A DNA stretch of 49,212 nucleotides from Piscinibacter sp. (GTDB taxonomy: Bacteria > Pseudomonadota > Gammaproteobacteria > Burkholderiales > Burkholderiaceae_C), in contig JAHBZL010000039.1 in NCBI GenBank assembly GCA_019635485.1, forward strand, positions 1 to 49,212. The letters run 5' to 3'. Shown in pieces: positions 3,682 to 49,212 of the stretch. Position numbers and translations under genes: made by a program. The notes under the pieces were generated by a model. That model saw only the letters and a list, made by a program, of their open reading frames with translations, had not been told where the DNA came from and ran no database searches. Every line of letters begins with the position of its first letter. The first letter of the stretch is position 1.

Positions 3682-6600
3682 TCACATGCTGCGCCGGTAC
3701 TGGCCGCCCACCTCGAACAGCGCGGTCGTGATCTGGCCGAGCGAACAGACCCGCACGGCGTCCATCAGCACCTCGAACACGTTGCGGTTCTCGATCGCCG
3801 CCTGTTGCAGCTGCTGCAGCAGGGCGGGCGCCTCGCCGGCATGGCGGGCGTGGAAGTCCGCCAGGCGCTGCAGCTGGCTCTGCTTCTCGGCCTCGGTCGA
3901 GCGCGCCAGCTCCAGCGCGGCGGGGATCGGGTCGCCGTGCGGATTGCGGAACGTGTTCACGCCGACGATGGGGTACTCGCCGGTGTGCTTGAGCATCTCG
4001 TAGTGCAGGCTCTCTTCCTGGATCTTGCCGCGCTGGTAGCCGGTCTCCATCGCGCCGAGCACGCCGCCGCGCTCGGCGATCTTCTCGAACTCGGCCAGCA
4101 CCGCCTCCTCGACCAACTCGGTCAGCTCGTCGATCACGAAGGCGCCCTGGTTCGGGTTCTCGTTCTTCGCCAGGCCCCACTCGCGGTTGATGATCAGCTG
4201 GATCGCCATCGCGCGGCGCACGCTCTCCTCGGTCGGGGTGGTGATCGCCTCGTCGTAGGCGTTCGTGTGCAGGCTGTTGCAGTTGTCGTAGATCGCGATC
4301 AGCGCCTGCAGCGTGGTGCGGATGTCGTTGAACGCGATCTCCTGCGCGTGCAGGCTGCGGCCGCTGGTCTGCACGTGGTATTTCAGCTTCTGGCTGCGCT
4401 CGTTGGCGCCGTAGCGGTCGCGCATCGCCACCGACCAGATGCGCCGCGCCACGCGCCCGAGCACGGTGTACTCCGGGTCCATGCCGTTGCTGAAGAAGAA
4501 CGACAGGTTCGGCGCGAAGTCGTCGATGTGCATCCCGCGCGCGAGGTACGCCTCGACGAAGGTGAAGCCGTTGGACAGCGTGAACGCCAGCTGCGAGATC
4601 GGATTCGCGCCGGCTTCGGCGATGTGATAGCCGGAGATGCTCACCGAGTAGAAGTTGCGCACCTGGTGGTGCACGAAGTACTCGGCGATGTCGCCCATCA
4701 CCTTGAGGCTGAACTCGGTCGAGAAGATGCAGGTGTTCTGGCCCTGGTCCTCCTTCAGGATGTCCGCCTGCACCGTGCCGCGCACGTTGGCCAGCGCCCA
4801 GGCGCGGATCTTGGCCGCCTCGTCGTCGGTCGGCTGGCGGCCGTTGTCGGCCTCGAACTTCTCGATCTGCTGATCGATCGCGGCGTTCATGAACATCGCC
4901 AGGATCGTCGGCGCCGGGCCGTTGATCGTCATCGACACCGAGGTGCTCGGGCTGCACAGGTCGAAGCCCGAGTACAGCACCTTCAGGTCATCCAGCGTGG
5001 CGATGCTGACGCCGGAGTTGCCGACCTTGCCGTAGATGTCCGGGCGCGGATCGGGGTCGTGGCCGTACAGCGTGACCGAATCGAAGGCGGTCGACAGCCG
5101 CTTGGCCGGCATGCCCTCGCTGACCAGCTTGAAGCGGCGGTTGGTGCGGAACGCGTCGCCTTCGCCGGCGAACATGCGCGTCGGATCCTCGTTCTCGCGC
5201 TTGAACGCGAACGTGCCGGCGGTGTAGGGGAAGCTGCCCGGCACGTTGTCCAGCATCAACCACTGCAGGATCTCGCCGTGGTCCTCGTACTTCGGCAGCG
5301 CCACCTTGCGGATCCGGCTGCCCGACAGCGTGGTGTGCGTCAGCGCGGTGCGGATCTCCCGGTCGCGGATCTTCACGACGTATTCGTCGCCCGCGTAGGC
5401 CTGCTGCATCTGCGGCCACATCGCGAGCAGCTTGCGCGCGCGCGGGTCGAGCTTCGCCTCGCGGAGCTGCGCCTGTTCCTCCAGCGCGTCGCGGGCCTTG
5501 TGCTTGTCCGGGATCGCCTCGTGCAGCATGCGCGAGCTCTCGCGCAGCTGCTGGATCTCGCGCGCCAGCCGGGCCTGCGTGCGCGCGCCGCGCTTGTAGG
5601 CGCGCACCGTGTCGGCGATGTCGGCCAGGTAACGCACGCGCGCGCCTGGCACGATGGCGACCTGCTGCGTGCTGTGGCGTGTCGCCACCGGTGGCAGGCG
5701 GCTCTCGCCCGCGCGCAGGCCGAGTTCGACGAGCCGCGGCAGCAGTGCCTGGTACAGCGCGGTCACGCCGTCGTCGTTGAAGCGGCTGGCCATCGTGCCG
5801 AACACCGGCATCGCGTCGGGCCGGCTCGAGAACGCGGCGCGGTTGCGCTGCACCTGCTTGGCCACGTCGCGCAGCGCGTCGGCCGCGCCCTTGCGGTCGA
5901 ACTTGTTGATCGCGACGAACTCGGCAAAGTCCAGCATGTCGATCTTCTCGAGCTGGCTGGCGGCACCGAACTCCGGCGTCATCACGTACAGCGGCACGTC
6001 CACCAGCGGCACGATCGCGGCGTCGCCCTGGCCGATGCCCGAGGTCTCGACGATCACCAGGTCGAACCCGGCCGCGCGGCAGGCCGCGACGACGTCCGGC
6101 AGCGCCTGGCTGATCTCGCTGCCGAAGTCGCGCGTCGCGAGGCTGCGCAGGTAGACGCGCGCCCCCTGCGCCCAGGGCTGGATCGCGTTCATGCGGATGC
6201 GGTCGCCGAGCAGCGCGCCGCCGCTCTTGCGCCGCGACGGGTCGATGCTGATCACCGCGACGTGCAGCCGGTCGTCCTGGTCCAGGCGCAGGCGCCGGAT
6301 CAGCTCGTCGGTCAGCGAGCTCTTGCCGGCGCCGCCGGTCCCGGTGATGCCCAGCACCGGCACGCGCGCGGCGTTGGCCTGTTCATGCAGCGCCGCCTTC
6401 AGCGCCGCCGGCGCGCGGCCGTTCTCCAGCGCCGTGATCAGCTGCGCCAGCGCGCGCCAGGCCGCCTCGCCGTGCCCCTGCAGCGCGGCCACGCCGGCCG
6501 GCGCCTGCGCCGACAGGTCGTGGTCGCAACGCATCAGCATCTCGCCGATCATCCCGGCCAGCCCCATGCGCTGGCCGTCCTCCGGGCTGTAGATGCGCGC

Positions 6601-6975
6601 CACGCCGTAGGCCTGCAGATCGGCGATCTCGGCCGGCACGATCACGCCGCCGCCGCCGCCGAACACCTGGATGTGCGCCCCGCCGCGCTCGCGCAGCAGG
6701 TCGATCATGTACTTGAAGTACTCGACGTGGCCGCCCTGGTAGGAGCTGATCGCGATGCCCTGCACGTCCTCCTGCAGCGCCGCGGTGACCACCTCGTCGA
6801 CCGAGCGGTTGTGGCCCAGGTGGATGACCTCCGCGCCCATGCCCTGCAGCAGGCGCCGCATGATGTTGATCGCCGCGTCGTGGCCGTCGAACAGGCTGGC
6901 GGCGGTGACGAAGCGCACCTTGTTGGTCGGGCGGTAGTCGGCCAGCGCCTTGTACTCGGCGGAAAGGTCGGTCAC
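3682..6975 (-). CDS. icmF: Fused isobutyryl-CoA mutase IcmF
   Basis: 1097 residues, the usual size for IcmF. The enzyme interconverts isobutyryl-CoA and n-butyryl-CoA using adenosylcobalamin; family members also act slowly on isovaleryl-CoA/pivalyl-CoA. The order is: B12-binding domain (about 18-150, D30-G-H32 giving the axial His), a MeaI-type G-protein chaperone (about 205-420, Walker A GTGGAGKS at 212-219, NKFD at 357-360), then the mutase barrel. Phe602 in RMFAGEG and Gln746 in GQNTCIF are the pair that distinguishes isobutyryl-CoA mutases from methylmalonyl-CoA mutases (Tyr and Arg there). His784 lies in SGYHIAEAG. Translation starts at GTG with GGAG eight bases upstream. The start is 22 bases after the PPK2 stop, so the two are probably co-transcribed. 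Confidence 0.96.
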
Positions 6976-6997
6976 GGTTTGTCTCCGTTGTGTCGGC

Positions 6998-7840
6998 TCA
7001 CTCGACGCGCAGCGACGCCAGTTCGGGGCTGCCCGGCGGGTAGCGCAGCTTCAGCCCCTTCAGCGTCTCGACCACGGCGGTGCCGATCATCAGGTTGCGA
7101 TGGGTCTTCGAATCGGCCGGCACGACGGTCCACGGAGCCCAGGGCGTGCCGGTGGCGCCGATCGCGTCGGCGTAGGCCTGCTGGTACGCGTCCCACTGCT
7201 GGCGCACCTCCAGGTCGCCGGCGGCGAACTTCCAGTGCTTGTTCGGGTCGTCCAGGCGCGCCTGCAGGCGCAGGCGCTGTTCGTCCTTCGAGATGTGCAG
7301 CAGGAACTTGCAGATCACCGTGCCGTTCTCCGTCAGCATGCGCTCGAAGTCGTTGATCTGCACGTAGCGCTGCCGCACCTGCTCGGGCGTGATCCAGCCG
7401 TTCACCGCCGGCACCAGCACGTCCTCGTAGTGGCTGCGATTGAAGATCACGATCTCGCCGGCGGCCGGCATGCGCTGATGGATGCGCCACAGGTAGTCGT
7501 GCGCCTTCTCGTCGGCGGTGGGCGCCTTCCAGCCGACGGCGTGCACGCCCAGCGCGCTGGTCTGGCCGAACACGCCGCGGATCGTGCCGTCCTTGCCGCT
7601 GGTGTCGGTGCCCTGCAGCACGACCAGCAGCTTGAAGCGCCGGTCGGCATAGAACAGGTCCTGCAGCGCGTCGATCTCGGTGGCGAGCGCGGCCACGCGC
7701 GCCTTGTCGCGCGCCTTGCTGCCGGTCGAGAACGGCTTGGCGGCGGGGTCGAACCGCCCCAGGTCGAAGCGCCGGCCGGCGCGGCCGGTGCCGGCGCTGC
7801 GGTGCTGGAACTCGGCGAACGTTGCCTTGCTGCGGGCCAT
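6998..7840 (-). CDS. Polyphosphate kinase 2 family protein (polyphosphate:nucleotide phosphotransferase)
   Basis: 280 residues, a single PPK2 domain of the short class III type (polyP to AMP/ADP in characterised members). Walker A is G77-TDTSGKDG (77-85), the Walker B-like motif is FNRSHYED (133-140), and the typical end [15 protein letters not shown] follows. Class III assignment rests on resemblance to the Meiothermus/Deinococcus enzymes and is not certain. The ATG has GGAGG at normal spacing. A perfect palindrome lies 25 bases upstream, and icmF follows after 22 bases. The enzyme could regenerate nucleotides for CoA-thioester chemistry or for the IcmF G-protein domain; that link is inference. 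Confidence 0.92.
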
Positions 7841-7864: not shown

Positions 7865-7882
7865 ATTGACGTATACGTCAAT
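7865..7882. promoter_or_regulatory. Predicted LiuR-type operator of the PPK2-icmF operon
   Basis: ATTGACGTATACGTCAAT is a perfect 18-base palindrome just upstream of the PPK2 start (ATG at 7840 on the minus strand). It has the same core, TTGACGTNNACGTCAA, as the site between the MerR-family regulator and the hydrolase at 30058-30073. The matching arms, the promoter-proximal position and the presence of a LiuR-like regulator in the same window support an operator role. Confidence 0.7.
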
Positions 7883-7971
7883 CTGCAAGTGTATCCGCAA
7901 GGGCTTGAGCCGGGGCGGTTTGGCCTCACAATGCGCGCCGTTGGGTTCCGCTGCGCCACGAACGCCGGAAC

Positions 7972-8634
7972 ATGGAGACCACCTTGCCACCGGGCAACGC
8001 ACCCATCAAGACCGCCGACGGGCTGGACGAGATCGCGACGCGCTCGCGCCGCCTCGGCCAGCGCCACCGCACGATGCTGCTGCTCGTCGACGGGCGGCGC
8101 AGCGTGGCCGAGGTGCAGCGCCTCGCGGCCCGGGCCGGCGTGCCCGCCAGCTGCTACGACGAGCTGATGGAGATGGGGCTCATCGCGCTGCCGCTGCCGA
8201 CGCTGCCGATCTCGGCGCTCGAGGCGATGCAGGCGGTGCCGCTGACGATCGACGTGCCGCTGCCGGAGGACGAGTCGGTGCTGCCCTCGTCGCAGTCGCT
8301 GGCCCCGGAATCGACGCTGAACGGCGCCCTCGGTCCGGCCGAGCCCTGGTCGGCGGTCGAGACCGGTCACGGCGACCTGGCCGACCTCGATCCCGCCCTC
8401 GAGGAAGCGCGCGACATGATGCTGCGCGCCGTGCGGGCCGAGGCGCCCGTGGCGGGTTCGCTCACCGTGATGCGCCTGCGCCGCGCACGCACCCGGGCCG
8501 ACCTGGCGGAACTGATCGACGAGGTCGAGGCGCGTGTGCGCAAGCCGCATCGCATGCTCGCCGCCACGCTGCTGATGCGGCGCGTGCAGGAACTGATCGG
8601 CGTCGCCGCCGACTCGTCGATGACCGCGGCCTGA
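7972..8634 (+). CDS. Unknown protein upstream of coaX
   Basis: 220 residues with no domain I can name. The N-terminal part (about 20-75) reads like a small helical, winged-helix-like module ([20 protein letters not shown], then [20 protein letters not shown]). A Pro/Ser/Glu-rich linker spans about 78-135. A helical C-terminal part (about 140-215: [15 protein letters not shown], then [18 protein letters not shown]) follows. There is no signal peptide or membrane segment, so it is probably cytoplasmic. It ends four bases before coaX, which suggests one transcript. The ATG at 7972 follows a weak purine stretch. Confidence 0.75.
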
Positions 8635-30037: not shown

Positions 30038-30057
30038 CGGCAGGCGCTTGGCTACAC

Positions 30058-30073
30058 TTGACGTAAACGTCAA
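30058..30073. promoter_or_regulatory. Predicted LiuR operator in the divergent promoter
   Basis: TTGACGTAAACGTCAA has matching seven-base arms around two central bases. It sits in the 62-base gap between the hydrolase start (30037, minus) and the MerR-family gene start (30100, plus). One dimer bound here could control both genes, including autoregulation. The same core occurs at 7865-7882 and, doubled, at 30980-30999. Confidence 0.7.
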
Positions 30074-30099
30074 TTCCTGCACCGCAGTGTAAGAGCGCC

Positions 30100-30579
30100 A
30101 TGCCTGCCCCCACTGTCGCCGAGGCGTCGCCGGCCGGCCCGACCTTCACGATCGGCGAGCTGGCGCGCGAGTTCGACCTCACCACGCGGGCGATCCGCTT
30201 CTACGAGGATTGCGGGCTGATCACCCCGCAGCGGCGCGGCCGCACGCGCATCTACACCGCGCGCGACCGCACCCGGCTCAAGCTGACGCTGCGCGGCAAG
30301 CGGCTCGGGCTCACGCTGGCGGAGGTCAAGGAGATCGTCGACATGTACGAGTCTCCGCGCGACACGCAGGCGCAGCTGCGCCGCTTCCTCGTCGTGCTGG
30401 GCGCGCACCGGCAGCAGCTCGAGCAGCAGCTGGCCGACCTGAACGCGACGCTCGACGAGGTGCGCACCCACGAGAAGGAGGCGCGGCGCCTGCTCGCCGA
30501 AGGCGAGCGGCGTGGGGGCGGCGCCGACACCGGAGCGTCCCCGACACCGGTCGCACCGGCCCGGGCCCGCCGGGGCTGA
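30100..30579 (+). CDS. liuR: LiuR-like MerR-family transcriptional regulator
   Basis: 159 residues. The MerR DNA-binding head is [20 protein letters not shown], then [20 protein letters not shown]. The block [20 protein letters not shown] is characteristic of the LiuR group, regulators of leucine/isovalerate degradation. A dimerising helix follows (about 95-135), with a short Pro/Ala-rich tail. There are no metal-binding cysteines as in the metal-sensing MerR proteins. The operator at 30058-30073 lies 27 bases upstream. Targets suggested by shared sites are the hydrolase, the thioesterase-ivd operon and PPK2-icmF. The effector is unknown; an acyl-CoA is likely by family. Confidence 0.85.
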
Positions 30580-30587
30580 CGACTCGG

Positions 30588-30833
30588 CTACTGCGACGCC
30601 GCGGGCGCCGCGCCCATCATCGCGCCGCAGGCTCCGTGCGGCGAATCCGTGCCGTCGTGGTGTTCCATGTGCATGCCGCCCATGCCCATGCCGTGGCCGT
30701 GGCCGTCGGCCATCGCAAGGGTCGGCGGCGACCCGTGGGCAGCCTCGTGGCGATGCCACGTCCCGCAGCCGGCCAGCGTCGCGGCGGCCAGCACGGCTAC
30801 CGCCAGCGTCACGAAACGAGGCAGGTTCTTCAT
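30588..30833 (-). CDS. Small His/Met-rich lipoprotein
   Basis: 81 residues. It starts [20 protein letters not shown] with a lipobox ending LAGC at about residue 22, so it is a lipoprotein. The mature part is rich in His, Met and Gly ([15 protein letters not shown]), a pattern that binds copper or other soft metals. GGAGAG precedes the ATG. The frame stays open much further upstream, but that extension would cross the operator at 30980-30999, and the signal peptide fixes the start. It lies tail-to-tail with the LiuR-like gene, eight bases apart. Confidence 0.7.
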
Positions 30834-30973
30834 CGCTCTCTCCAATGCACAGGCCGCGGCGGGTCGCAACGGTCCGCGGTCACTGTAGGCGAGCCCCCCG
30901 CGCGTCGGATTGAGGGGCGGCAACGGGGGGCGCGGAACTTTCGCGGGCCGGCTGGCCAGGTCATGGGCATGTC

Positions 30974-30979
30974 TATAAT
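30974..30979 (+). promoter_or_regulatory. -10 element of the thioesterase-ivd operon
   Basis: A perfect TATAAT, directly followed by the double palindrome at 30980-30999. No good -35 element is visible about 17 bases upstream. Transcription would start near 30986, inside the operator. Confidence 0.55.
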
Positions 30980-30999
30980 TGACGTTTACGTAAACGTCA
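30980..30999. promoter_or_regulatory. Double LiuR-type operator at the start site of thioesterase-ivd
   Basis: TGACGTTTACGTAAACGTCA is a perfect 20-base palindrome. It can be read as two overlapping 16-base operators offset by six bases (30979-30994 and 30985-31000), with one and two mismatches to TTGACGTNNACGTCAA. It covers the expected transcription start just after TATAAT, which suits repression. Confidence 0.7.
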
Positions 31000-31017
31000 T
31001 ATGCCGGGAGCCCCAGG

Positions 31018-31470
31018 ATGACGCCCCACGACGCCGGCTTCGAGCAGCGCACGCGAGACTCCTTCGCCCGCCAGGCCGCGATGGCCACGCTGGGCGCCAC
31101 GCTCGAGCGCATCGAGCCCGGCCGGGTGGTGCTCGCGATGGCGCACCGCGACACATTGACGCAGCAGCACGGCTTCGTGCATGCCGGCATGCTGGCCGCG
31201 GCACTCGATTCGGCCTGCGGCTATGCGGCGTTTTCACTGATGCCCGACGACACGGCGGTGCTGACCATCGAGTTCAAGATCAACCTGCTGGCACCCGCGC
31301 GCGGGCCGCTGTTCCGCTTCGAGGGCCGTGTCGTGAAGCCCGGGCGCACGATCACCGTGGTCGACGGGCGGGCGACGCAGCACGAGCCGGGCGGCGGCGA
31401 AGACAAGCTGATCGCGACGATGACCGCGACCGTGATGACCGTGCGGGGCCGCGAGGCCCTGAAACACTGA
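31018..31470 (+). CDS. PaaI-type thioesterase, hotdog fold
   Basis: 150 residues. The hotdog helix motif [20 protein letters not shown] (about 51-70) is typical of PaaI/YbgC-like acyl-CoA thioesterases, followed by strands [14 protein letters not shown] and [21 protein letters not shown] lies upstream of the ATG. It is the first gene after the double operator and ends 14 bases before ivd. Role by context: releasing CoA from stalled branched or short acyl-CoAs. Confidence 0.88.
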
Positions 31471-32773: not shown

Positions 32774-33895
32774 ATGAAGCATTGGAAACAGGCGCTCGCC
32801 GCGATCGCGGCGGGCCTCGGCATGGCGTTGCCCGCAGCGGCCGCCGACCCCATCGTCATCGGACAGGTGGCCCCGTTCAGCGGGCCGCAGGCGATCACCG
32901 GCAAGGCGATCCACGCCGGCGCGAAGCTCTACTTCGATGCCGTCAATGCACGCGGCGGCGTGCGCGGCCGGCCGATCAAGCTGGTGACCCGGGACGACGC
33001 GCAGAAGCCCGAGGAGAGCGTGCGCCTGACGCGCGAGCTGATCGCGGCCGAGGCGCCGCTGGCGCTGATCGGGACGGTCGGCACAGCCAACCTCGAGGCG
33101 CTGGCCAAGGACGGCGTGCTCGCCCAGCAACGCGTCTCGATGGTCGGCGCCGTCTCCGGCGCCGCCTCGGTGGTGCAGGCACCGGGCATGCACATCGTCA
33201 AGGCCAGCTACCACGACGAGGTGGGGCGGCTGTTCAGCCAGCTGGCCGGCGTCGGCGTGAAGCGGGTCGGCCTGGTGATCCAGGAGGACGGGCTCGGCCG
33301 CGACGTGCTCGCCGGGGCCGAGGCAGCCGCGCAGCGGCACGGCATCGACCTCGCGGTGCGCACCAGCTACCCGCGCAACACCGTCGCGGTCGAGAAGGCG
33401 GTCAGCGAGATCGTCGCCTCGAAGGTGCAGGTGGTGTTCCTCGGCGCCACCACGGCGGCCGGGATCGAGTTCGTGCGGCAGTACGCGGCCGCCGGCGGCA
33501 CGGCCACGCTGTACGGCCTGTCCATCATCGATACCGACGCGCTCTTCAAGGCGCTCGGCCCGGAGCGTGCGCGCGGTTATGCGTTCTCGGTGGTGCTGCC
33601 GCTGGCGCACCAGACCAACCGCCCGGTGGTGCGCGAGTACCTGCAGCTGCGCCAGGCCTCGTCGGACCCGGCGCTCTCGGCGCGTTCGATCGAGGGCTTC
33701 GTCGCGGCCAAGGCGCTGGTCAAGGTGCTGGAGGGGACGACCAACCTGACGCCGGCCGGCGTCACCGCCGCGCTGGCGACGGCGCGCGCGGTCGACGTCG
33801 GCGGCTACCTGCTCGACTTCAGCGCCAACGACCGGCCCGGGTCGCGCTACGTCGACTTCGCGATGTTCGGCGCCCAGGGGCGCATCCTGCAGTAG
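32774..33895 (+). CDS. ABC transporter substrate-binding protein, branched-chain amino acid type
   Basis: 373 residues. A Sec signal peptide with cleavage near AAAADP (about residue 24) precedes a type I periplasmic binding fold of the LivJ/Peripla_BP_6 kind (IVIGQVAPFSGPQAITGKAI, RGGVRGRPIKLVTRDDAQ, GLVIQEDGLGRDVLAG). GGGAAGG precedes the ATG. No permease or ATPase genes are next to it, so it is an orphan binding protein: it may serve a distant Liv-type importer or a sensor. The ligand cannot be predicted. Confidence 0.9.
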   Translation: MKHWKQALAAIAAGLGMALPAAAADPIVIGQVAPFSGPQAITGKAIHAGAKLYFDAVNARGGVRGRPIKLVTRDDAQKPEESVRLTRELIAAEAPLALIGTVGTANLEALAKDGVLAQQRVSMVGAVSGAASVVQAPGMHIVKASYHDEVGRLFSQLAGVGVKRVGLVIQEDGLGRDVLAGAEAAAQRHGIDLAVRTSYPRNTVAVEKAVSEIVASKVQVVFLGATTAAGIEFVRQYAAAGGTATLYGLSIIDTDALFKALGPERARGYAFSVVLPLAHQTNRPVVREYLQLRQASSDPALSARSIEGFVAAKALVKVLEGTTNLTPAGVTAALATARAVDVGGYLLDFSANDRPGSRYVDFAMFGAQGRILQ

Positions 33896-33950: not shown

Positions 33951-34634
33951 ATGAGCACCAACCTCGACGAACTCTTCGAAAGCAACCGCCGCTGGGCCGA
34001 CGCCACGGAGCGGCGCTCGCCGGGTTTCTTCACCAGCCTGCTGGCCCAGCAGGCGCCGCAGTACCTGTGGATCGGCTGCGCCGACAGCCGCGTGCCCGCC
34101 AACGAGATCCTCGGGCTGCTGCCGGGCGAGGTGTTCGTGCACCGCAACGTCGCCAACGTCGTCGTGCACTCGGACCTGAACGCGCTGTCGGTCATGCAGT
34201 TCGCGATCGACATGCTGCAGGTCCGCCACATCATGGTGGTCGGGCACTACGGCTGCGGCGGTGTGCGCGCCGCGCTGGAGGGCCTGCGCATCGGCATCGC
34301 GGACAACTGGATCCGCCACGTGCAGGACGTGCGCAACAAGCACCGCACCTGGCTGGACGGTGTCGGCGACGACGAGCTGCGCCTGAAGGCGCTGTGCGAG
34401 CTGAACGTGCTCGAGCAGGCCCTCAACGTCTGCGAGACGACCGTCGTGCAGGACGCGTGGCAGCGCGGCCAGACGGTCGTCGTGCACGGCTGGGTGTACG
34501 GCCTGCACAACGGGCTGCTGCAGGACCTGAAGATGACGGTCGCCGGCGCCGGCGACGTGGCGGCCGCCTACGGCCTGGCGCTCGGGGCGCTGAAGACCCG
34601 CTTCGACGCCATCCGCAAGAACGGCCGTCCCTGA
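33951..34634 (+). CDS. can: Beta-class carbonic anhydrase
   Basis: 227 residues, a normal size for the E. coli Can type. It interconverts CO2 and bicarbonate in the cytoplasm. Zinc ligands are Cys43, His99 and Cys102, with the Asp45-Arg47 pair in [10 protein letters not shown], and GHYGCGGV. Bicarbonate is needed by biotin carboxylases such as the one encoded at 46449, though the gene is housekeeping. aceK follows after 29 bases. Confidence 0.95.
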
Positions 34635-34663: not shown

Positions 34664-36448
34664 ATGCCAAACTTCCCGCAACGCCTGACCGATGCGCGCG
34701 GCTTCGACATCGCGCAGGCGATGCTGGACGGCTTCAACCGCCACTACCGGCTGTTCCGCGAGACCAGCGCGGCCGCGAAGCGGCGCTTCGAGCAGGCCGA
34801 CTGGCACGGCCAGCAGCGCGCGCAGCGCGAGCGCATCGAGTTCTACGACAAGCGCGTCGACGAGGCGGCCGAGCGCCTGCAGAACGAGTTCCAGGCCGCC
34901 ACGCTGCCGATGGACGTCTGGCAGCAGGTCAAGCTTCACTACATCGGCCTGCTGGTGAACCACCACCAGCCGGAGCTCGCCGAGACCTTCTTCAACTCGG
35001 TGACGACCAAGATCCTGCACCGCAGCTACTTCCACAACGACTTCATCTTCGTGCGCCCGGCGGTCTCGACCGAGTACATCGAAAACGACGAGCCCGCGTC
35101 GTTGCCGACCTACCGCGCCTACTACCCGACCAAGGACACGCTGCGCGAGACGCTGCTGCGCGTGATCGACAACTTCCAGCTCGAGCGCGAGTTCGAGGAC
35201 CTGGGCCGGGACGTGGACTTCGTGCTCGCGGCGATGATCTCGCGGCTGGGCGAGTTCCGCATGCGCGCGAACTTCCAGCTGCAGGTGCTGTCGTCCCTCT
35301 TCTACCGCAACAAGGGAGCCTACGCGGTCGGCAAGATCATCAACGGCTTCAACGAGCTGCCGTTCGCGCTGCCGATCCTGCACACCGGGCGCGGCCAGCT
35401 GGTGATCGACGCGGCGCTGTTCGGCGAGGACGACCTGCTGATGCTGTTCAGCTTCGCGCGCGCCTACTTCATGGTCGACATGGAGGTGCCGTCGGCCTGC
35501 GTGCAGTTCCTGCGTTCGATGATGCCGCGCAAGCCGCGCTCCGAGCTGTACAGCGCGATCGGCCTGCAGAAGCAGGGCAAGAACATCTTCTACCGCGACT
35601 TCCTCTACCACCTGCGCCACAGCAGCGACCGCTTCCGCATCGCACCCGGCATCAAGGGCATGGTGATGCTGGTGTTCGACCTGCCGAGCTTCCCGTACGT
35701 CTTCAAGGTCATCAAGGACTTCTACCCGGCACCCAAGGAGACCACGCGCGAGCACATCAAGAGCCGCTACCTGCTGGTCAAGCAGCATGACCGCGTCGGC
35801 CGCATGGCCGACACGCTGGAGTACAGCAACGTCGCGTTTCCGCGCGCACGCTTCGACCCCGAACTGGTCGAGGAGCTGAAGCACCACTGCCCGAGCCTCG
35901 TCGAGGAGGACGGTGAGGCGCTGGTGATCCGCCACCTGTACATCGAGCGCCGCATGATCCCGCTGAACATCTACCTGCAGGAGGCGACGCCGCGCCAGAT
36001 GGAGCATGCCGTCGTCGAATACGGCAACGCGATCAAGGACCTGGTGCGCGCCAACATCTTCCCCGGCGACATGCTGTGGAAGAACTTCGGCGTCACGCGC
36101 CACGGCAAGGTGGTGTTCTACGACTACGACGAGATCGAGTACCTGACCGACTGCCAGTTCCGCCGCGTGCCGACGCCGCGCACCGAGGAGGAGGAGATGT
36201 CCGGCGAGGTCTGGTACCACGTCGGTCCGCGCGACGTCTTCCCGGAGACCTTCGGCCCGTTCCTGCTCGGCAACACCGCGGTGCGCGAGGTGTTCATGAA
36301 GCACCACGCCGACCTGCTCGACGTGGCGTTCTGGCAGGGCCACAAGGAGCGCATACAGGCCGGCCACGTGCACGACGTGTTCCCCTACGAGCAGGACAAG
36401 CGCTTCCGGCGCCGCCGCCGCGACGCGTCCGAGGCGGTCGGGGTGTAA
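34664..36448 (+). CDS. aceK: Isocitrate dehydrogenase kinase/phosphatase
   Basis: 594 residues (about 578 in E. coli). A bifunctional enzyme that switches isocitrate dehydrogenase off and on, directing carbon to the glyoxylate shunt during growth on acetate or fatty acids. Family blocks seen: the regulatory helical N-terminal half (to about 310), [20 protein letters not shown] around the nucleotide-binding lysine, and the catalytic part with [20 protein letters not shown] and [13 protein letters not shown]. No aceA/aceB lies beside it. This fits an organism that lives on acyl-CoA-derived acetyl-CoA. Confidence 0.97.
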
Positions 36449-36961: not shown

Positions 36962-38140
36962 ATGTCCGAATCCATCGTCATCGCCTCCGCCGCCCGTACG
37001 CCGATCGGCGGCCTGCTGGGCGACTTCTCGTCGCTCGCCGCGTGGGAACTCGGCGCCGTCGCGATCAAGGCGGCCGTCGAGCGTGCCGGGGTGCCCGGCG
37101 ACGCCATCGACGAAGTGCTGCTCGGCAACTGCCTGATGGCAGGCCAGGGCCAGGCCCCGGCGCGCCAGGCGTTGCGCAAGGCCGGCCTGCCGGACTCGAC
37201 CGGCGCCGTCACGCTCTCGAAGATGTGCGGCTCCGGCATGCGCGCGATGATGTTCGCGCACGACATGCTGGCCGCCGGCACGGCGAACGTCATGCTCGCC
37301 GGCGGCATGGAGAGCATGACCAACGCGCCGCACCTGATGTTCGCGCGCAAGGGCGTCAAGTACGGTGCGAGCGCCGTCTACGACCACATGGCGCTGGACG
37401 GCCTGGAAGACGCCTACGAACGCGGCAAGGCGATGGGCGTGTTCGCGGAGCAGTGCGTCGGCAAGTACAGCTTCACGCGCGAGGCGATGGACCAGTTCGC
37501 GATTGCCTCGACGCAGCGCTCCAAACAGGCCAACGAGGACGGCAGCTTCGGCTGGGAGATCGCCCCGGTCACGCTGCCCGGCAAGGGCGGCGAGACGCTG
37601 GTCAAGTTCGACGAGCAGCCCTTCAAGGCCAAGCTGGACAAGATCCCCGGCCTCAAGCCGGCGTTCAAGAAGGACGGCGCGATCACCGCCGCCACCTCGT
37701 CGAGCATCTCCGACGGAGCGGCCGCGCTGGTGCTGATGCGCGAATCGACCGCGAAGCAGATGGGCGCCAAGCCGCTCGCGCGCATCGTGGCGCATGCCGT
37801 GCACGCCCAGGCGCCGGAGTGGTTCACCACCGCGCCGGTCGGGGCGATCGAGAAGGTGCTGAAGAAGAGCGGCTGGGCGGTCAAGGACGTGGACCTGTGG
37901 GAGGTCAACGAGGCCTTCGCCGCGGTGACGATGGCGGCGATGGCCGAGTTCAAGCTGCCGCACGAGATCGTCAACGTGCACGGCGGCGCCTGCGCGCTCG
38001 GGCATCCGATCGGCGCCAGCGGCGCGCGCATCGTCGTCACGCTGCTCGGCGCGCTGCGCAAGCAGGGCAAGAAGAAGGGCGTTGCGGCGCTGTGCATCGG
38101 CGGCGGCGAAGCCACGGCGCTCGCGCTGGAACTGCTGTGA
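36962..38140 (+). CDS. Acetyl-CoA C-acyltransferase (thiolase)
   Basis: 392 residues. It has the thiolase triad: Cys89 (LSKMCGSGM), His348 (GHPIGASG) and Cys378 (CIGGGEA). It is of the biosynthetic/degradative acetoacetyl-CoA type by size and by NVHGGACALGHPIGASGARI. AAGGAG precedes the ATG, and an SDR and an acyl-CoA dehydrogenase follow on the same strand. Probable role: cleaving acetoacetyl-CoA or 2-methylacetoacetyl-CoA. Exact chain preference cannot be read. Confidence 0.93.
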   Translation: MSESIVIASAARTPIGGLLGDFSSLAAWELGAVAIKAAVERAGVPGDAIDEVLLGNCLMAGQGQAPARQALRKAGLPDSTGAVTLSKMCGSGMRAMMFAHDMLAAGTANVMLAGGMESMTNAPHLMFARKGVKYGASAVYDHMALDGLEDAYERGKAMGVFAEQCVGKYSFTREAMDQFAIASTQRSKQANEDGSFGWEIAPVTLPGKGGETLVKFDEQPFKAKLDKIPGLKPAFKKDGAITAATSSSISDGAAALVLMRESTAKQMGAKPLARIVAHAVHAQAPEWFTTAPVGAIEKVLKKSGWAVKDVDLWEVNEAFAAVTMAAMAEFKLPHEIVNVHGGACALGHPIGASGARIVVTLLGALRKQGKKKGVAALCIGGGEATALALELL

Positions 38141-44760: not shown

Positions 44761-45317
44761 TGCGCCTGCCCGACCAGCTGCGCATCCAGGCGCACGCGAA
44801 CCGGCTCGCGAACCACCGGCTGCATGCGGCGATGGCCGCGCTGCCCGAGGCCGACTTCCACGCGCCGCGCACCAGCTTCTTCCCGAGCCTCGCGGCAACG
44901 CTGAACCACATCCTGGCCGTCGACCTGTACTACGTCGGCGCGCTGCACGGCGATGCCGAACTGCCGCAGCGCTATGCGGCTTTCGTGCCGTGCGCGACGC
45001 TGACCGAGCTCGCCGCGCGCCAGCGCGCCTGCGACGAGCGGCTGCTGCGCTTCTGCGCCGCGCTCGACGAGGCCGGCTGCGATGCGATGGTCGACATGGA
45101 CCGCGGCACCCACGTGCAGCGCGACCGGGCCGGCCACGTGCTGGCCCATGTCTTCATGCACCAGACGCACCACCGCGGCCAGGTGCACGCGATGCTCGCC
45201 GGCACGGGCGTCGCTCCCCCGCAGCTGGACGAGTTCCTGATGCCCAGCGATGCGGGCTTCCGCGCCGCCGACATGGCGGCGCTCGGCTGGCGCGAAGCCG
45301 ACGTCTACGGTGCCTGA
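44760..45317 (+). CDS. DinB-family metalloprotein
   Basis: 185 residues, four-helix bundle. Likely metal histidines: LNHILAVDLYYVGAL (first) and HVFMHQTHHRGQVHAML (second and third). DinB/YfiT-like proteins bind a divalent metal, and some act as bacillithiol, mycothiol or glutathione-dependent transferases. Coupling to a rhodanese and a glutathione-type isomerase hints at thiol chemistry. Its 3' end overlaps that of the AraC gene by 13 bases. Confidence 0.9.
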   Translation: MRLPDQLRIQAHANRLANHRLHAAMAALPEADFHAPRTSFFPSLAATLNHILAVDLYYVGALHGDAELPQRYAAFVPCATLTELAARQRACDERLLRFCAALDEAGCDAMVDMDRGTHVQRDRAGHVLAHVFMHQTHHRGQVHAMLAGTGVAPPQLDEFLMPSDAGFRAADMAALGWREADVYGA

Positions 45318-46315
45318 GCGGCGCGGCGCCACTGCTCCGGCGTCTGCCCGGTCCACTGGCGGAACGCGCGTGCGAAGCTCTTCGCGTTGCGGAAGCCGGA
45401 CAGCGCGGCCACCTGCTTGACCGGCCGCTCGCTGCGCGCCAGCAGCGCCAGCGCGGCGTCGCGCCGCACCTCGTCCTTCAGCGCCTGGAGCGAACTGCCT
45501 TCGTCGTGCAGCTGGCGATGCAGCGTGCGCACCGAGACGTGCAGCGCCTCGGCGAGCACGGCCGCGTTGGCGGCGCCGGCGCGCAGCTGCTCGCGCACGC
45601 GCTGCGCCAGCAGCCGGTCGCGCCGGTAGGGGCGCACCGTCAGCGGCAGAGCGCGCTGCAGCATCGTGCGCAGCGCCGGCTCGTCGCGGCGCAGCGGCAG
45701 CGCCAGGTAGGCGGCGTCGAACACCAGGCCGGCACGCGCCGCGCCGAAGCGCACCGGGCCCGGGAACATCGCCGGGTACGCGTCGGCATGAGGCGGCGCC
45801 GCGAACGGGAAGGCCGCCTCGCGCAGCGGGATGCGCGAATCGATCGCCCAGCAGGCGAAGCCGTGCACGGAGCGCAGCAGCGTGACCAGCGCGATCTCGC
45901 GGAACTCGCCGAGCGGTACCGCCTCGGCGATGGCCAGCGTCGCGGCCGGGCCGTCCGTCGACAGCGACAGCCGCACGTCCTCGACCAGCAGCCGGTGGTG
46001 GCGGCACCAGCGCTTCAGCGCGACGCCGAGATCCGGCGCGCCGATCGACGCGCGGCACAGCATGCCGTAGCTGCCCCAGGGCAGGCGGCGCGAGAACCAG
46101 CCGAGCGCCTCGTCGTCGAGCTCCTGCATCGCGCGGGCGGAGACGGTCTCCATCTGCAGCGCATCGATGCGCGCGTCCGGCCGTCGCAGCTGGGCCGGCG
46201 TGATCCGCGCCTCGCGCAGCGCCTCCGCGGGGTCCTGGCCGTATTTGCGGTAGGCCGCCACCATCGCGCGCACGAACGCCATGGGTGTGAGCGCGGGCAG
46301 CGGGCGGTTCGGCAT
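45305..46315 (-). CDS. AraC-family transcriptional regulator
   Basis: 336 residues. The N-terminal about 200 residues fit the Arabinose_bd-type (OruR/ArgR-like) ligand domain ([20 protein letters not shown]). The C-terminal AraC double helix-turn-helix (about 230-330) has [20 protein letters not shown] and [20 protein letters not shown]. It is divergent from the carboxylase-subunit gene at 46449 across 133 bases, so it probably controls that operon. The effector is unknown. Confidence 0.92.
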
Positions 46316-46448
46316 GGCGCAGTCTCGCCGGTCATGGCACGATTTGCAACCTCACTGGCGCCCACGCCGCCCGCCGCGCGCCTATGCTGCCCCCTCGTGC
46401 GCGCCCCGATGGCGCGGCGCGCGCGCTTCGCCCACACTCGATCGCACC

Positions 46449-48071
46449 ATGCCCGTCATCGCCTCCCAGCTCAACCCGCGCGCCGAGGACTTCAAGGCCA
46501 ACGCCGCGGCCATGCGTTCCCTGGTCGACGACCTGAACTCGCGGCTCGCGCAGATCGCCCAGGGCGGTGGCGAGGCCGCGCGCGCCAAGCACACGGGGCG
46601 CGGCAAGCTGCTGCCGCGCGAGCGCGTCGAGATGCTGCTCGACCCGGACACGCCCTTCCTCGAGATCGCGCCGCTGGCCGCGCTCGGCATGTACAAGGAG
46701 AAGGGCGGGCAGGATGCGGCGCCGGGCGCCGGCATGATCGCCGGCATCGGCCGCGTGGCCGGTGTCGAGTGCCTGATCGTCTGCAACGACGCGACGGTCA
46801 AGGGCGGCACCTACTTCCCGATGACGGTCAAGAAGCACCTGCGCGCGCAGGAGATCGCGCAGCAGAACCGCCTGCCCTGCATCTACCTGGTCGACTCCGG
46901 CGGCGCCAACTTGCCGAACCAGGACGACGTGTTCCCCGACCGCGAGCACTTCGGCCGCATCTTCTTCAACCAGGCCAACATGAGCGCCCAGGGCATTCCG
47001 CAGATCGCGGTGGTGATGGGCTCGTGCACCGCGGGCGGCGCCTACGTGCCGGCGATGAGCGACGAGTCGATCATCGTGAAGAACCAGGGCACGATCTTCC
47101 TCGGCGGCCCGCCGCTGGTGAAGGCGGCGATCGGCGAGGTGGTCAGCGCCGAGGACCTGGGCGGCGGCGACGTGCACACGCGCCTGTCGGGCGTCGCGGA
47201 CCACCTGGCGCAGGACGACACCCATGCGCTCGCGCTGGCGCGCCGCGCGGTGGCGAACTTGAACTGGCGCAAGCCGCAGCCGATGCGGCTGGTGCCCCCC
47301 CGGCCGCCGGCCTTCGACCCCGGCGAGCTGCACGGCGTGATCCCGACCGACCCCCGCAAGCCCTACGACGTGCGCGAGATCATCGCGCGCATCGTCGACG
47401 CCAGCGAGTTCGACGAGTTCAAGGCGCGCTACGGCACCACGCTGGTGACCGGCTTTGCGCACATCGAAGGCATGCCGGTGGGCATCGTCGCCAACAACGG
47501 CGTGCTGTTCAGCGAGAGCGCGATGAAAGGGGCGCACTTCATCGAGCTGTGCGCGCAGCGCAAGGTGCCGCTCGTCTTCCTGCAGAACATCACCGGCTTC
47601 ATGGTCGGCCGCAAGTACGAGAGCGAAGGCATCGCCAAGCACGGCGCGAAGATGGTCACCGCCGTCTCAACCGCCAACGTGCCCAAGTTCACGGTGATCA
47701 TCGGCGGCAGCTTCGGCGCCGGCAACTACGGCATGTGCGGCCGCGCCTTTGCGCCGCGCTTCCTGTGGATGTGGCCGAACGCGCGCATCTCGGTGATGGG
47801 CGGCGAGCAGGCCGCCAGCGTGCTCGCCACCGTGCGGCGCGACGGCATCGAGGCCAAGGGCGGCAGCTGGTCGGCCGACGAGGAGGCGGCGTTCAAGAAG
47901 CCGATCCTCGAGCAGTTCGAGCACCAGGCGCACCCGTACTACGCCAGTGCGCGGCTGTGGGACGACGGCGTGATCGACCCGGCCGACACGCGCCGCGTGC
48001 TGGCGCTCGGCCTCAGCGCCAGCCTGAACGCGCCGATCCCGGACGCGAAGTTCGGCGTGTTCCGCATGTGA
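46449..48071 (+). CDS. liuB: Methylcrotonyl-CoA carboxylase-type carboxyltransferase (beta) subunit
   Basis: 540 residues, the usual size for the beta subunit. It transfers CO2 from biotin to 3-methylcrotonyl-CoA in leucine breakdown. Blocks: [58 protein letters not shown] and [20 protein letters not shown]. The start [10 protein letters not shown] is common in the family. The biotin-bearing alpha subunit is not in the window. A geranyl-CoA carboxylase (AtuC) is an alternative: the two subfamilies are close. The promoter region holds no LiuR-type palindrome. Confidence 0.88.
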
Positions 48072-48083
48072 CGCGCGCGGCCA

Positions 48084-49212
48084 TGGACAACGTCTACCTC
48101 ACGCCCGAACACGAGCTGCTGCGCGATCAGGTGGCGCGCTTCCTCGCGCGCGAGGTCGAGCCGCACGGCGAGCGCTGGGAACGCGAGGGCTGCGTGCCGC
48201 GCGAGGTGCTGCGCCGGATGGGCGATGCCGGGCTGTTCGGGCTGATGTTTTCGTCGCGCTTCGGCGGTGCCGAGGCCGATGCGCTGACCAATCTGGTGTT
48301 CGCCGAGGCGCTCTCGCAGTCGACCTTCGCCGGCTTCGTGATCACCGTGCTCGTGCACACCGACATGGCGAGCCCGCACCTGCACCATGCCGGCAGCGAG
48401 GCGCAGCTCGCGCGCTGGATGCCGGGCGTGACCTCGGGGCGCGTCATCACCGCGGTGGCGATCACCGAGCCGGGCGCAGGCTCGGACGTCGCCGGCCTGC
48501 AGACCCGCGCACGCCGCGACGGCGACAGCTGGGTGCTGGACGGCAGCAAGCTCTTCATCACCAACGGCGTGCACGCCGACCTGGTTTTCGTCGCCGCGCG
48601 CACCGGTCCCGGCCGGCACGACATCTCGATGTTCATCGTCGAGAAGGGCACGCCCGGCTTCACGGTCGGGCGCCAGCTCGAGAAGACCGGCTGGCTGTCG
48701 TCGGACACCGCCGAGCTGGTGTTCGACGGCTGCCGCATTCCGGCGGAGAACCTGCTCGGCGTCGAGCACCAGGGCTTCCGGTCGGTGATGAAGAACTTCC
48801 AGACCGAGCGCATCGCGCTGGCCGCGATGGCGGTGGGGCACTGCACGCAGGCGCTCGCGCTGACGCTCGCGCATGTGCGCGACCGCCGCGCGTTTGGCGC
48901 GACGCTGTTCGACAAGCAGGTGGTGCGGCAGCGCCTGGCGATGCTGGACGCGAAGGTGCGCGCCGCGCGCCAGTACCTGTACCACTGCGGCTGGCTGGTC
49001 ACGCAGGGACGCGATGTCGTGCAGGACGTCTCGCTGCTGAAGGCGCTCACCGGCGAGCTGGTCAACGAGGTCGTGCAGGCCTGCCAGCAGTTCCACGGCG
49101 GCATGGGCTACATGCGCGGCACGGCGATCGAGCGCCTGTGGCGCGACGCGCGCATCCTCGCGATCGGCGGCGGCGCCAGCGAGGTGATGCTCGACGAGGC
49201 CGCGAAGCGGTA
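48084..49212 (+). CDS. Acyl-CoA dehydrogenase (cut by the window end)
   Basis: At least 376 residues; the frame is open to the last base, so probably only a few residues are missing. It begins 12 bases after liu[16 protein letters not shown] and LFITNGVHADL are flavin-contact blocks. The common C-terminal catalytic Glu is absent (AIGGGASEVM), while Glu242 in NFQTERIALA lines up with the alternative base used by isovaleryl- and long-chain acyl-CoA dehydrogenases. A branched substrate such as isovaleryl- or citronellyl-CoA is likely. Confidence 0.9.

What the first reader, a model, noticed from the sequence alone, without database searches (positions are those of the whole stretch)
30058..30999. 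Shared palindrome suggests a compact LiuR regulon in this window
The core TTGACGTNNACGTCAA appears at 30058-30073 (between a LiuR-like MerR gene and an MBL hydrolase), in overlapping double form at 30980-30999 (on the predicted start site of the thioesterase-ivd operon, right after TATAAT), and at 7865-7882. All three are promoter-proximal in a genome of about 70% GC, where such AT-rich palindromes are rare. LiuR proteins are known regulators of branched-chain amino acid catabolism and bind palindromes rich in ACGT. The double operator may allow tighter or cooperative control of ivd than of the regulator itself.
Basis: partly seen in the sequence, partly recalled or inferred. Interest (0 to 1): 0.75.

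Follow-up and report, generated by a model that had tools for sequence, protein, structure and literature searches.

The report
LiuR operators controlling branched-chain acyl-CoA genes
Three near-identical DNA palindromes here are very probably the binding sites of one neighbouring repressor (LiuR) that switches genes for breaking down branched-chain amino acids, and comparison with relatives suggests that a vitamin-B12 enzyme gene, icmF, belongs to the same switch.

Summary
TTGACGTNNACGTCAA occurs exactly at 7866-7881 and 30058-30073; an overlapping double lies at 30979-31000, abutting a TATAAT. The two exact copies are the only ones in the 5.0-Mb draft genome. The LiuR reading is supported: the 159-aa MerR protein is 43% identical to Vibrio campbellii LiuR (best own-genome paralogue 29%), sits beside ivd, and in 150 family genomes a close orthologue and the motif co-occur (motif in 121 of 123 with it, 4 of 27 without). 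A tree recovers a LiuR group but without firm support (58/99). The operator precedes icmF in 79 of 85 family genomes with LiuR and 1 of 10 without; outside the family, 17 of 21 with and 1 of 7 without. PPK2 is an occasional rider (20 of 95). The layout suggests repression over the start site. The LiuR regulon is known; icmF as a member was not found in the papers searched, but RegPrecise and Kazakov 2009 could not be read. No binding is shown.

The parts
30058..30073 (.). single LiuR operator between the divergent MBL and liuR genes
   Evidence: exact match; a site (up to 2 mismatches) within 250 bp upstream of the MerR match in 51 of 62 related loci
30053..30058 (+). TACACT, -10-like box abutting the operator (liuR direction)
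   Evidence: sequence; the TACACT-TTGACGT junction is also seen in genus-mates
30100..30579 (+). liuR, MerR-family regulator, 159 aa
   Evidence: Pfam MerR_1, MerR, MerR-DNA-bind; 43% identical to V. campbellii LiuR over 121 aa
28979..30037 (-). MBL-fold hydrolase, divergent from liuR
   Evidence: Pfam Lactamase_B and B_lactamase-like_C; an MBL match lies upstream of MerR in 57 of 62 related loci
30979..31000 (.). overlapping double LiuR operator (two 16-mers offset by 6 bp)
   Evidence: such a site precedes TE/IVD in the genus-mate loci read
30974..30979 (+). TATAAT, -10-like box abutting the double operator
   Evidence: sequence
31018..31470 (+). hotdog-fold thioesterase
   Evidence: Pfam 4HBT; TIGR00369
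31485..32663 (+). isovaleryl-CoA dehydrogenase (ivd/liuA), 392 aa
   Evidence: Pfam acyl-CoA dehydrogenase domains; the 5 PDB sequences under 1e-90 are all isovaleryl-CoA dehydrogenases
32774..33895 (+). periplasmic binding protein, branched-chain amino acid transporter type; operon membership inferred from order and spacing
   Evidence: Pfam Peripla_BP_6
33951..34634 (+). carbonic anhydrase
   Evidence: NF007756 258.4 bits, cutoff 251
34664..36448 (+). AceK, isocitrate dehydrogenase kinase/phosphatase
   Evidence: Pfam AceK domains; NF002804 (longer frame)
36962..38140 (+). acetyl-CoA C-acyltransferase (thiolase)
   Evidence: Pfam Thiolase_N/C; TIGR01930 396.4 bits, cutoff 240.55
7866..7881 (.). 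single LiuR operator upstream of ppk2-icmF (18-bp palindrome 7865-7882)
   Evidence: exact match; a TATA-centred exact site in 8 of 8 genomes of the genus, shown to precede ppk2-icmF in the 2 read
7888..7893 (-). TACACT, -10-like box 6 bp upstream of the operator (icmF direction)
   Evidence: sequence; same box in several relatives
6998..7840 (-). PPK2-family polyphosphate kinase
   Evidence: Pfam PPK2; TIGR03709 329.1 bits
3682..6975 (-). icmF, fused isobutyryl-CoA mutase/GTPase, 1097 aa
   Evidence: NF045497 1950.5 bits, cutoff 1500; PDB 4xc6

Best explanation
The palindromes are operators of LiuR, the MerR-family protein encoded at 30100-30579. Most likely (inferred) a LiuR dimer sits on each 16-bp palindrome over the transcription start and blocks RNA polymerase at three promoters: liuR/MBL, thioesterase-ivd and ppk2-icmF. 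An acyl-CoA or other intermediate made from leucine or valine would release it. The metabolite that makes sense of the set is isovaleryl-CoA, substrate of IVD and one of the IcmF substrates; IcmF also turns valine-derived isobutyryl-CoA into n-butyryl-CoA. In the 22-bp doubles, two overlapping sites 6 bp apart share a central ACGT and could take two dimers on opposite faces of the helix (inferred). Shown here: the sites, their recurrence at the same genes, co-occurrence with LiuR, and an excess of -10-like boxes just upstream of icmF operators. Not shown: binding, repression and the ligand.
For: Two exact sites in 5.0 Mb, 0 for the control. Of 150 family genomes, 125 have TTKACGTNNACGTMAA against 15 with one hit of the reversed control. 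By presence of the MerR orthologue: motif in 121 of 123 with it, 4 of 27 without it, p 6.7e-21; 2 of the 4 exceptions have a diverged homologue with a palindrome in its own locus. Operator upstream of icmF: 79 of 85 with LiuR, 1 of 10 without, p 4e-8. Order-wide loci: 19 of 23 with LiuR (17 of 21 outside the family), 1 of 7 without, p 0.002. Other operators in relatives lie beside etfBA, ETF-QO, SDR, carboxyltransferase, thiolase and acyl-CoA synthetase genes. The V. campbellii liuR locus has ivd, the carboxyltransferase and two variants of the motif. TANNNT just upstream of 43 of 80 icmF operators, shuffle mean 8.4, maximum 17 in 1000 runs; stricter TATAAT test 12 hits, mean 2.7, maximum 8 in 200 runs.
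Against: No binding or expression data. P-values ignore relatedness among genomes. With rows corrected, the tree puts the window protein and LiuR on one side but with support only 58/99; an earlier tree (96/95) held two wrongly extracted rows, another one. The -10 box test was designed after seeing the sequences. G016 and G114 have LiuR but no motif hit; G023 and G087 have hits but no close LiuR. Of genomes with LiuR, icmF lacks the operator in 6 of 85 in the family and 4 of 21 outside it. In L079 a LiuR homologue is divergent from icmF but the gap holds no such palindrome. 11 of 55 loci lack a site between MerR and TE/IVD, 8 of them with gaps of at most 53 bp. The window's own carboxyltransferase gene lacks an operator.
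Confidence: 0.86

Rival explanations
1. Another regulator whose distribution parallels LiuR (for example a TetR protein such as LiuQ or FadP, names from PMC5343134) binds these palindromes, and LiuR is a passenger.
For: Only sequence evidence links LiuR to the motif; four family genomes without a close MerR orthologue have motif hits.
Against: The motif lies upstream of the liuR gene itself in 51 of 62 loci; two of the four exceptions have a diverged homologue with a palindrome in its locus; the V. campbellii liuR locus carries motif variants.
Confidence: 0.06
2. LiuR acts as a classical MerR activator that untwists an over-long promoter spacer.
For: MerR-family membership. At some icmF promoters the operator lies upstream of a TAGAAT-like box instead, 19 of 80 with a downstream TANNNT against a mean of 7.4.
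Against: In the window the operators lie downstream of the -10-like boxes, and this layout is the commoner one at icmF (43 of 80). LiuR is called a repressor in PMC3223726 (passages).
Confidence: 0.05
3. The 7866 site controls the divergent hypothetical gene (7972-8634) or PPK2, not icmF.
For: The site lies between those genes.
Against: PPK2 was found in only 20 of 95 icmF upstream regions; in the other 60 regions with a site it lies within about 220 bp before icmF.
Confidence: 0.05
4. Chance palindromes.
For: Sites with two mismatches are no more frequent than the control.
Against: Exact sites, their recurrence and the controls.
Confidence: 0.005

Closest known systems
LiuR regulon of Proteobacteria (Kazakov et al. 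2009, recalled, not read; RegPrecise; Shewanella in PMC3223726, passages)
   Same: MerR-family regulator beside ivd/liu genes; targets for branched-chain amino acid use; a link to the glyoxylate branch (aceBA in Shewanella, aceK downstream of ivd here).
   Different: icmF (sometimes behind ppk2) as a recurring target in Burkholderiales was not found in the papers searched; liuR is paired with a divergent MBL hydrolase; the carboxylase gene is some 14 kb from ivd in this window and lacks the operator.
Vibrio campbellii LiuR (PMC3858670, passages; locus L230 from another record of the species)
   Same: 43% identity over 121 aa to the window MerR, next to ivd and carboxyltransferase homologues, with motif variants upstream.
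   Different: There it lies between liuABCDE and ivdABCDEFG; no icmF match in the 16-kb stretch.
IcmF of Cupriavidus metallidurans (PDB 4xc6; PMC10481361, passages)
   Same: Same fused mutase/GTPase architecture, E-value 0 over residues 9-1097.
   Different: Its regulation is not treated in the passages read ('operon' occurs 0 times).
CueR/SoxR-type MerR activators
   Same: Same DNA-binding family.
   Different: Operator position over the predicted start site; solved relatives are only weakly similar (best E 1.6e-10).

Membership tests
LiuR | MerR-family protein without a large effector domain | tested here: met
   Pfam MerR_1, MerR and MerR-DNA-bind only, 159 aa
LiuR | Groups with published LiuR rather than with other MerR proteins | tested here: inconclusive
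   The 15-row group is one side of a branch in the corrected tree, support 58/99, not firm. Similarity favours it: V. campbellii LiuR 43% over 121 aa, best own paralogue 29%, E 3.6e-7
LiuR | Gene beside ivd/liu catabolic genes | tested here: met
   synteny in relatives
LiuR | ACGT palindrome upstream of its own gene and of branched-chain catabolic genes | tested here: met
   the published motif itself was not read, only the sites in L230
LiuR | Binds these sites and represses | not testable with these tools
   promoter geometry only
LiuR | Released by a branched-chain catabolic intermediate | not testable with these tools
   none
IcmF | Fused B12-binding, GTPase and mutase domains above the curated cutoff | tested here: met
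   Pfam domains; NF045497 1950.5 bits, cutoff 1500; PDB 4xc6
Isovaleryl-CoA dehydrogenase | Closest solved relatives are IVDs | tested here: met
   5 of 5 PDB sequences under 1e-90
MerR activator with 19-20 bp spacer | Operator centred between -35 and -10 | tested here: inconclusive
   In the window operators follow the -10-like boxes, but start sites are predicted, not mapped

The most novel reading that the evidence does not exclude
icmF is a core member of the LiuR regulon across much of Burkholderiales. B12-dependent skeletal rearrangement (isobutyryl-CoA to butyryl-CoA, isovaleryl-CoA and pivalyl-CoA) would then be a normal, co-regulated branch of valine and leucine breakdown, which would give IcmF a physiological role.
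Probability: 0.75. Interest if true: 0.5.

Novelty: new member of a known kind. Interest (0 to 1): 0.4.

Why it matters
It turns a small set of palindromes into a testable regulon and ties IcmF, treated as structure and enzymology in the passages I read, to branched-chain amino acid catabolism. It predicts that icmF is induced together with ivd on leucine or valine, and that valine carbon may pass through butyryl-CoA in these bacteria.

Tried and rejected
PPK2 as the recurring target: rejected, PPK2 in 20 of 95 icmF upstream regions. "Double operator special to ivd": not supported. The L079 neighbourhood (LiuR homologue divergent from icmF) looked like independent proof, but its gap holds no palindrome. 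Plasmid records gave 9 relatives of the regulator; the two regions opened carried no annotation, so genes there were identified by tblastn. First frames for PPK2 and ivd were wrong and corrected. The first tree gave a LiuR clade at 96/95 but two rows (L086, L237) were not the intended proteins; a second had L235 in antisense; the corrected one gives 58/99. Because of this I lowered confidence from 0.88 to 0.86 and the tree feature to inconclusive. Kazakov 2009, PMC3281689 and PMC4646380 are not held, and supplementary files could not be read, so whether RegPrecise already lists icmF is unknown. No structure prediction was run.

Rows dropped or not tested: of 101 family genomes with icmF, 6 were not tested for an upstream operator (G026, where only 124 bases would remain; G071, G079, G124, G134, G137, where the gene start is missing), leaving 95; for a few the start was estimated from a partial match. 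Of 42 order-level genomes with icmF, the 30 with loci were tested; two of the seven without LiuR had shortened upstream sequence (615 and 963 bases). Absence of MerR was read by name for 20 of 27 family genomes and inferred for 7 from the match list; likewise for some order genomes. Of 67 MerR loci, L079-L082 were left out of the betaproteobacterial counts and one more has too little upstream sequence (62 tested). The 20 stretches were picked by me from the capped listing, from nine genomes, and not every neighbouring gene was scanned.

Full report
What was checked. TTGACGTATACGTCAA lies at 7866-7881, TTGACGTAAACGTCAA at 30058-30073, and the overlapping double TTGACGTTTACGTAAACGTCAT at 30979-31000. 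In the window, 9 matches with up to 3 mismatches were found against a shuffle mean of 0.58, and 0 of 100 shuffles reached 9. The window is a whole contig (C33) of a 5.0-Mb draft genome of 81 contigs, 84% complete. That genome holds 2 exact sites, both in the window, and none of the reversed control pattern. With two mismatches allowed the count is 28 against 26 for the control.

Genes. The regulator at 30100-30579 has MerR domains only. Divergent from it is an MBL-fold hydrolase. Downstream lie a hotdog thioesterase, isovaleryl-CoA dehydrogenase (its 5 PDB matches under 1e-90 are all IVDs), a periplasmic binding protein, carbonic anhydrase, AceK, a thiolase, an SDR protein and a second acyl-CoA dehydrogenase. 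The third site lies upstream of a PPK2-family kinase followed after 22 bp by icmF. IcmF matches NF045497 at 1950.5 bits (cutoff 1500) and the solved Cupriavidus enzyme. [quoted passage not shown]

Is the regulator LiuR? PMC3858670 (passages read) places liuR of V. campbellii between liuABCDE and ivdABCDEFG. The V. campbellii locus fetched here, from another record of that species, holds a MerR gene 43% identical over 121 aa, next to an ivd homologue (69%) and a carboxyltransferase homologue (64%) on one side and a thiolase homologue on the other, with two variants of the palindrome (2 mismatches each) upstream. The best MerR paralogue in the window's own genome is 29% identical, E 3.6e-7. A 22-row tree with corrected rows puts the window protein, this LiuR and 13 relatives on one side of a branch, apart from four own-genome paralogues and three others, but with support 58/99, which is not firm. 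An earlier tree with 96/95 contained two wrong rows and is withdrawn. PMC3223726 (passages read) calls LiuR a MerR-family repressor of branched-chain amino acid use, with aceBA among its Shewanella targets.

Conservation. In the regulator loci fetched (67), the order MBL, MerR, thioesterase or IVD, carbonic anhydrase, AceK, thiolase recurs with gaps and variants. A site with up to two mismatches lies upstream of MerR in 51 of 62 loci tested, and between MerR and TE/IVD in 44 of 55; 8 of the 11 without one have gaps of at most 53 bp and may be transcribed with liuR. In the genus, 8 of 8 genomes including the own one have exactly two exact sites, one with a TATA centre and one with a TTT/AAA centre.

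Co-occurrence. Of 150 family genomes, 123 have a close MerR orthologue (E up to 1e-30), 125 have the motif TTKACGTNNACGTMAA (the reversed control has one hit in 15) and 101 have icmF. The motif is present in 121 of 123 genomes with the orthologue and 4 of 27 without it (Fisher p 6.7e-21). Two of the four exceptions, G094 and G064, have a diverged homologue (38% and 35%) with a palindrome in its own locus; G023 and G087 do not. G016 and G114 have the orthologue but no motif hit; within 1.5 kb of their liuR the best match has 5 mismatches. I fetched up to 1.3 kb upstream of icmF in 95 of the 101 genomes. An operator with up to two mismatches is there in 79 of 85 with the orthologue and 1 of 10 without it, the one being G094 (p 4e-8). 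In 20 of the 95 a PPK2 gene lies upstream of icmF; in 19 of these the operator precedes PPK2 and in one it lies between PPK2 and icmF. In a second sample at the level of the order, 42 of 150 genomes have icmF and 54 of 150 a MerR relative at E up to 1e-12. Of the 30 icmF loci given, the operator is present in 19 of 23 with LiuR (17 of 21 outside the own family, in nine families) and 1 of 7 without, the one being an 84%-complete assembly (p 0.002). Two of the 30 are from the own family and are also in the first sample. The p-values treat genomes as independent, which they are not.

Wider targets. Twenty further stretches around sites in nine family genomes show operators beside IVD, carboxyltransferase, thiolase, ETF beta/alpha, ETF-ubiquinone oxidoreductase, SDR and acyl-CoA synthetase genes. 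Some sites lie beside genes that gave no Pfam match in the frame tested, and some neighbours were not scanned. In genus-mates G001 and G004 a further double operator directly precedes the carboxyltransferase gene. In the window an AraC-family gene (45305-46315) sits at that place and the best match in 46251-46500 has 5 mismatches.

Mechanism. In the window TATAAT (30974-30979) and TACACT (30053-30058) abut the operators, and TACACT on the minus strand (7893-7888) lies 6 bp before the third. Around 80 icmF operators, a TANNNT box just upstream is found in 43, against a shuffle mean of 8.4 and a maximum of 17 in 1000 runs; downstream in 19, mean 7.4, maximum 16. A stricter TATAAT test gave 12 against 2.7, maximum 8 in 200 runs. 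The TANNNT test was set up after reading the sequences. The layout suits a repressor that covers the start site or, at some promoters, the core promoter; start sites are predicted, not mapped. Doubles are the commoner form at icmF (62 of 80); two or more sites occur at TE/IVD in 28 of 44 and at the regulator in 22 of 51 loci with a site (p 0.064). Two dimers on opposite faces, offset by 6 bp, is my inference.

Novelty. LiuR regulons are known (PMC5343134 and PMC3223726, passages read; Kazakov 2009 not held, recalled). A search for LiuR with isobutyryl-CoA mutase gave 1 paper, on Rhodospirillum rubrum, which concludes that such a mutase is unlikely there (passages). A search for LiuR with methylmalonyl-CoA mutase gave 3: that one, PMC9802188 (no LiuR in the main text) and PMC9636800 (liuR named once as part of a liu cluster). 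None reports icmF under LiuR in what I saw. RegPrecise could not be consulted. I file this as a new member of a known kind.

Noticed in passing
45305-46449: An AraC-family gene lies divergent from the carboxyltransferase gene where genus-mates G001 and G004 have a double LiuR operator; no operator is found here (best match 5 mismatches). Possible change of regulator for this operon.
   Followed up: partly
3682-7840: A PPK2-family polyphosphate kinase stands in front of icmF in 20 of 95 family genomes; whether it supplies nucleotides for the GTPase or adenosyltransferase step is unknown.
   Followed up: partly
L079:685-4462: In a gammaproteobacterial MAG a LiuR homologue (about 47%) is divergent from icmF (about 65%), but the gap has no ACGT palindrome.
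   Followed up: partly
48127-49104: The minus-strand frame here may be the antisense of an acyl-CoA dehydrogenase gene on the plus strand behind the carboxyltransferase (it matches IVD genes on their opposite strand).
   Followed up: no
30588-30833: Small minus-strand frame between liuR and the thioesterase, by eye a possible lipoprotein; no Pfam match in the frame given.
   Followed up: no
G016 and G114 (family genomes; L232, L233): Both have a close LiuR orthologue but no hit of TTKACGTNNACGTMAA in assemblies 89% and 85% complete; the operator may have changed there.
   Followed up: partly
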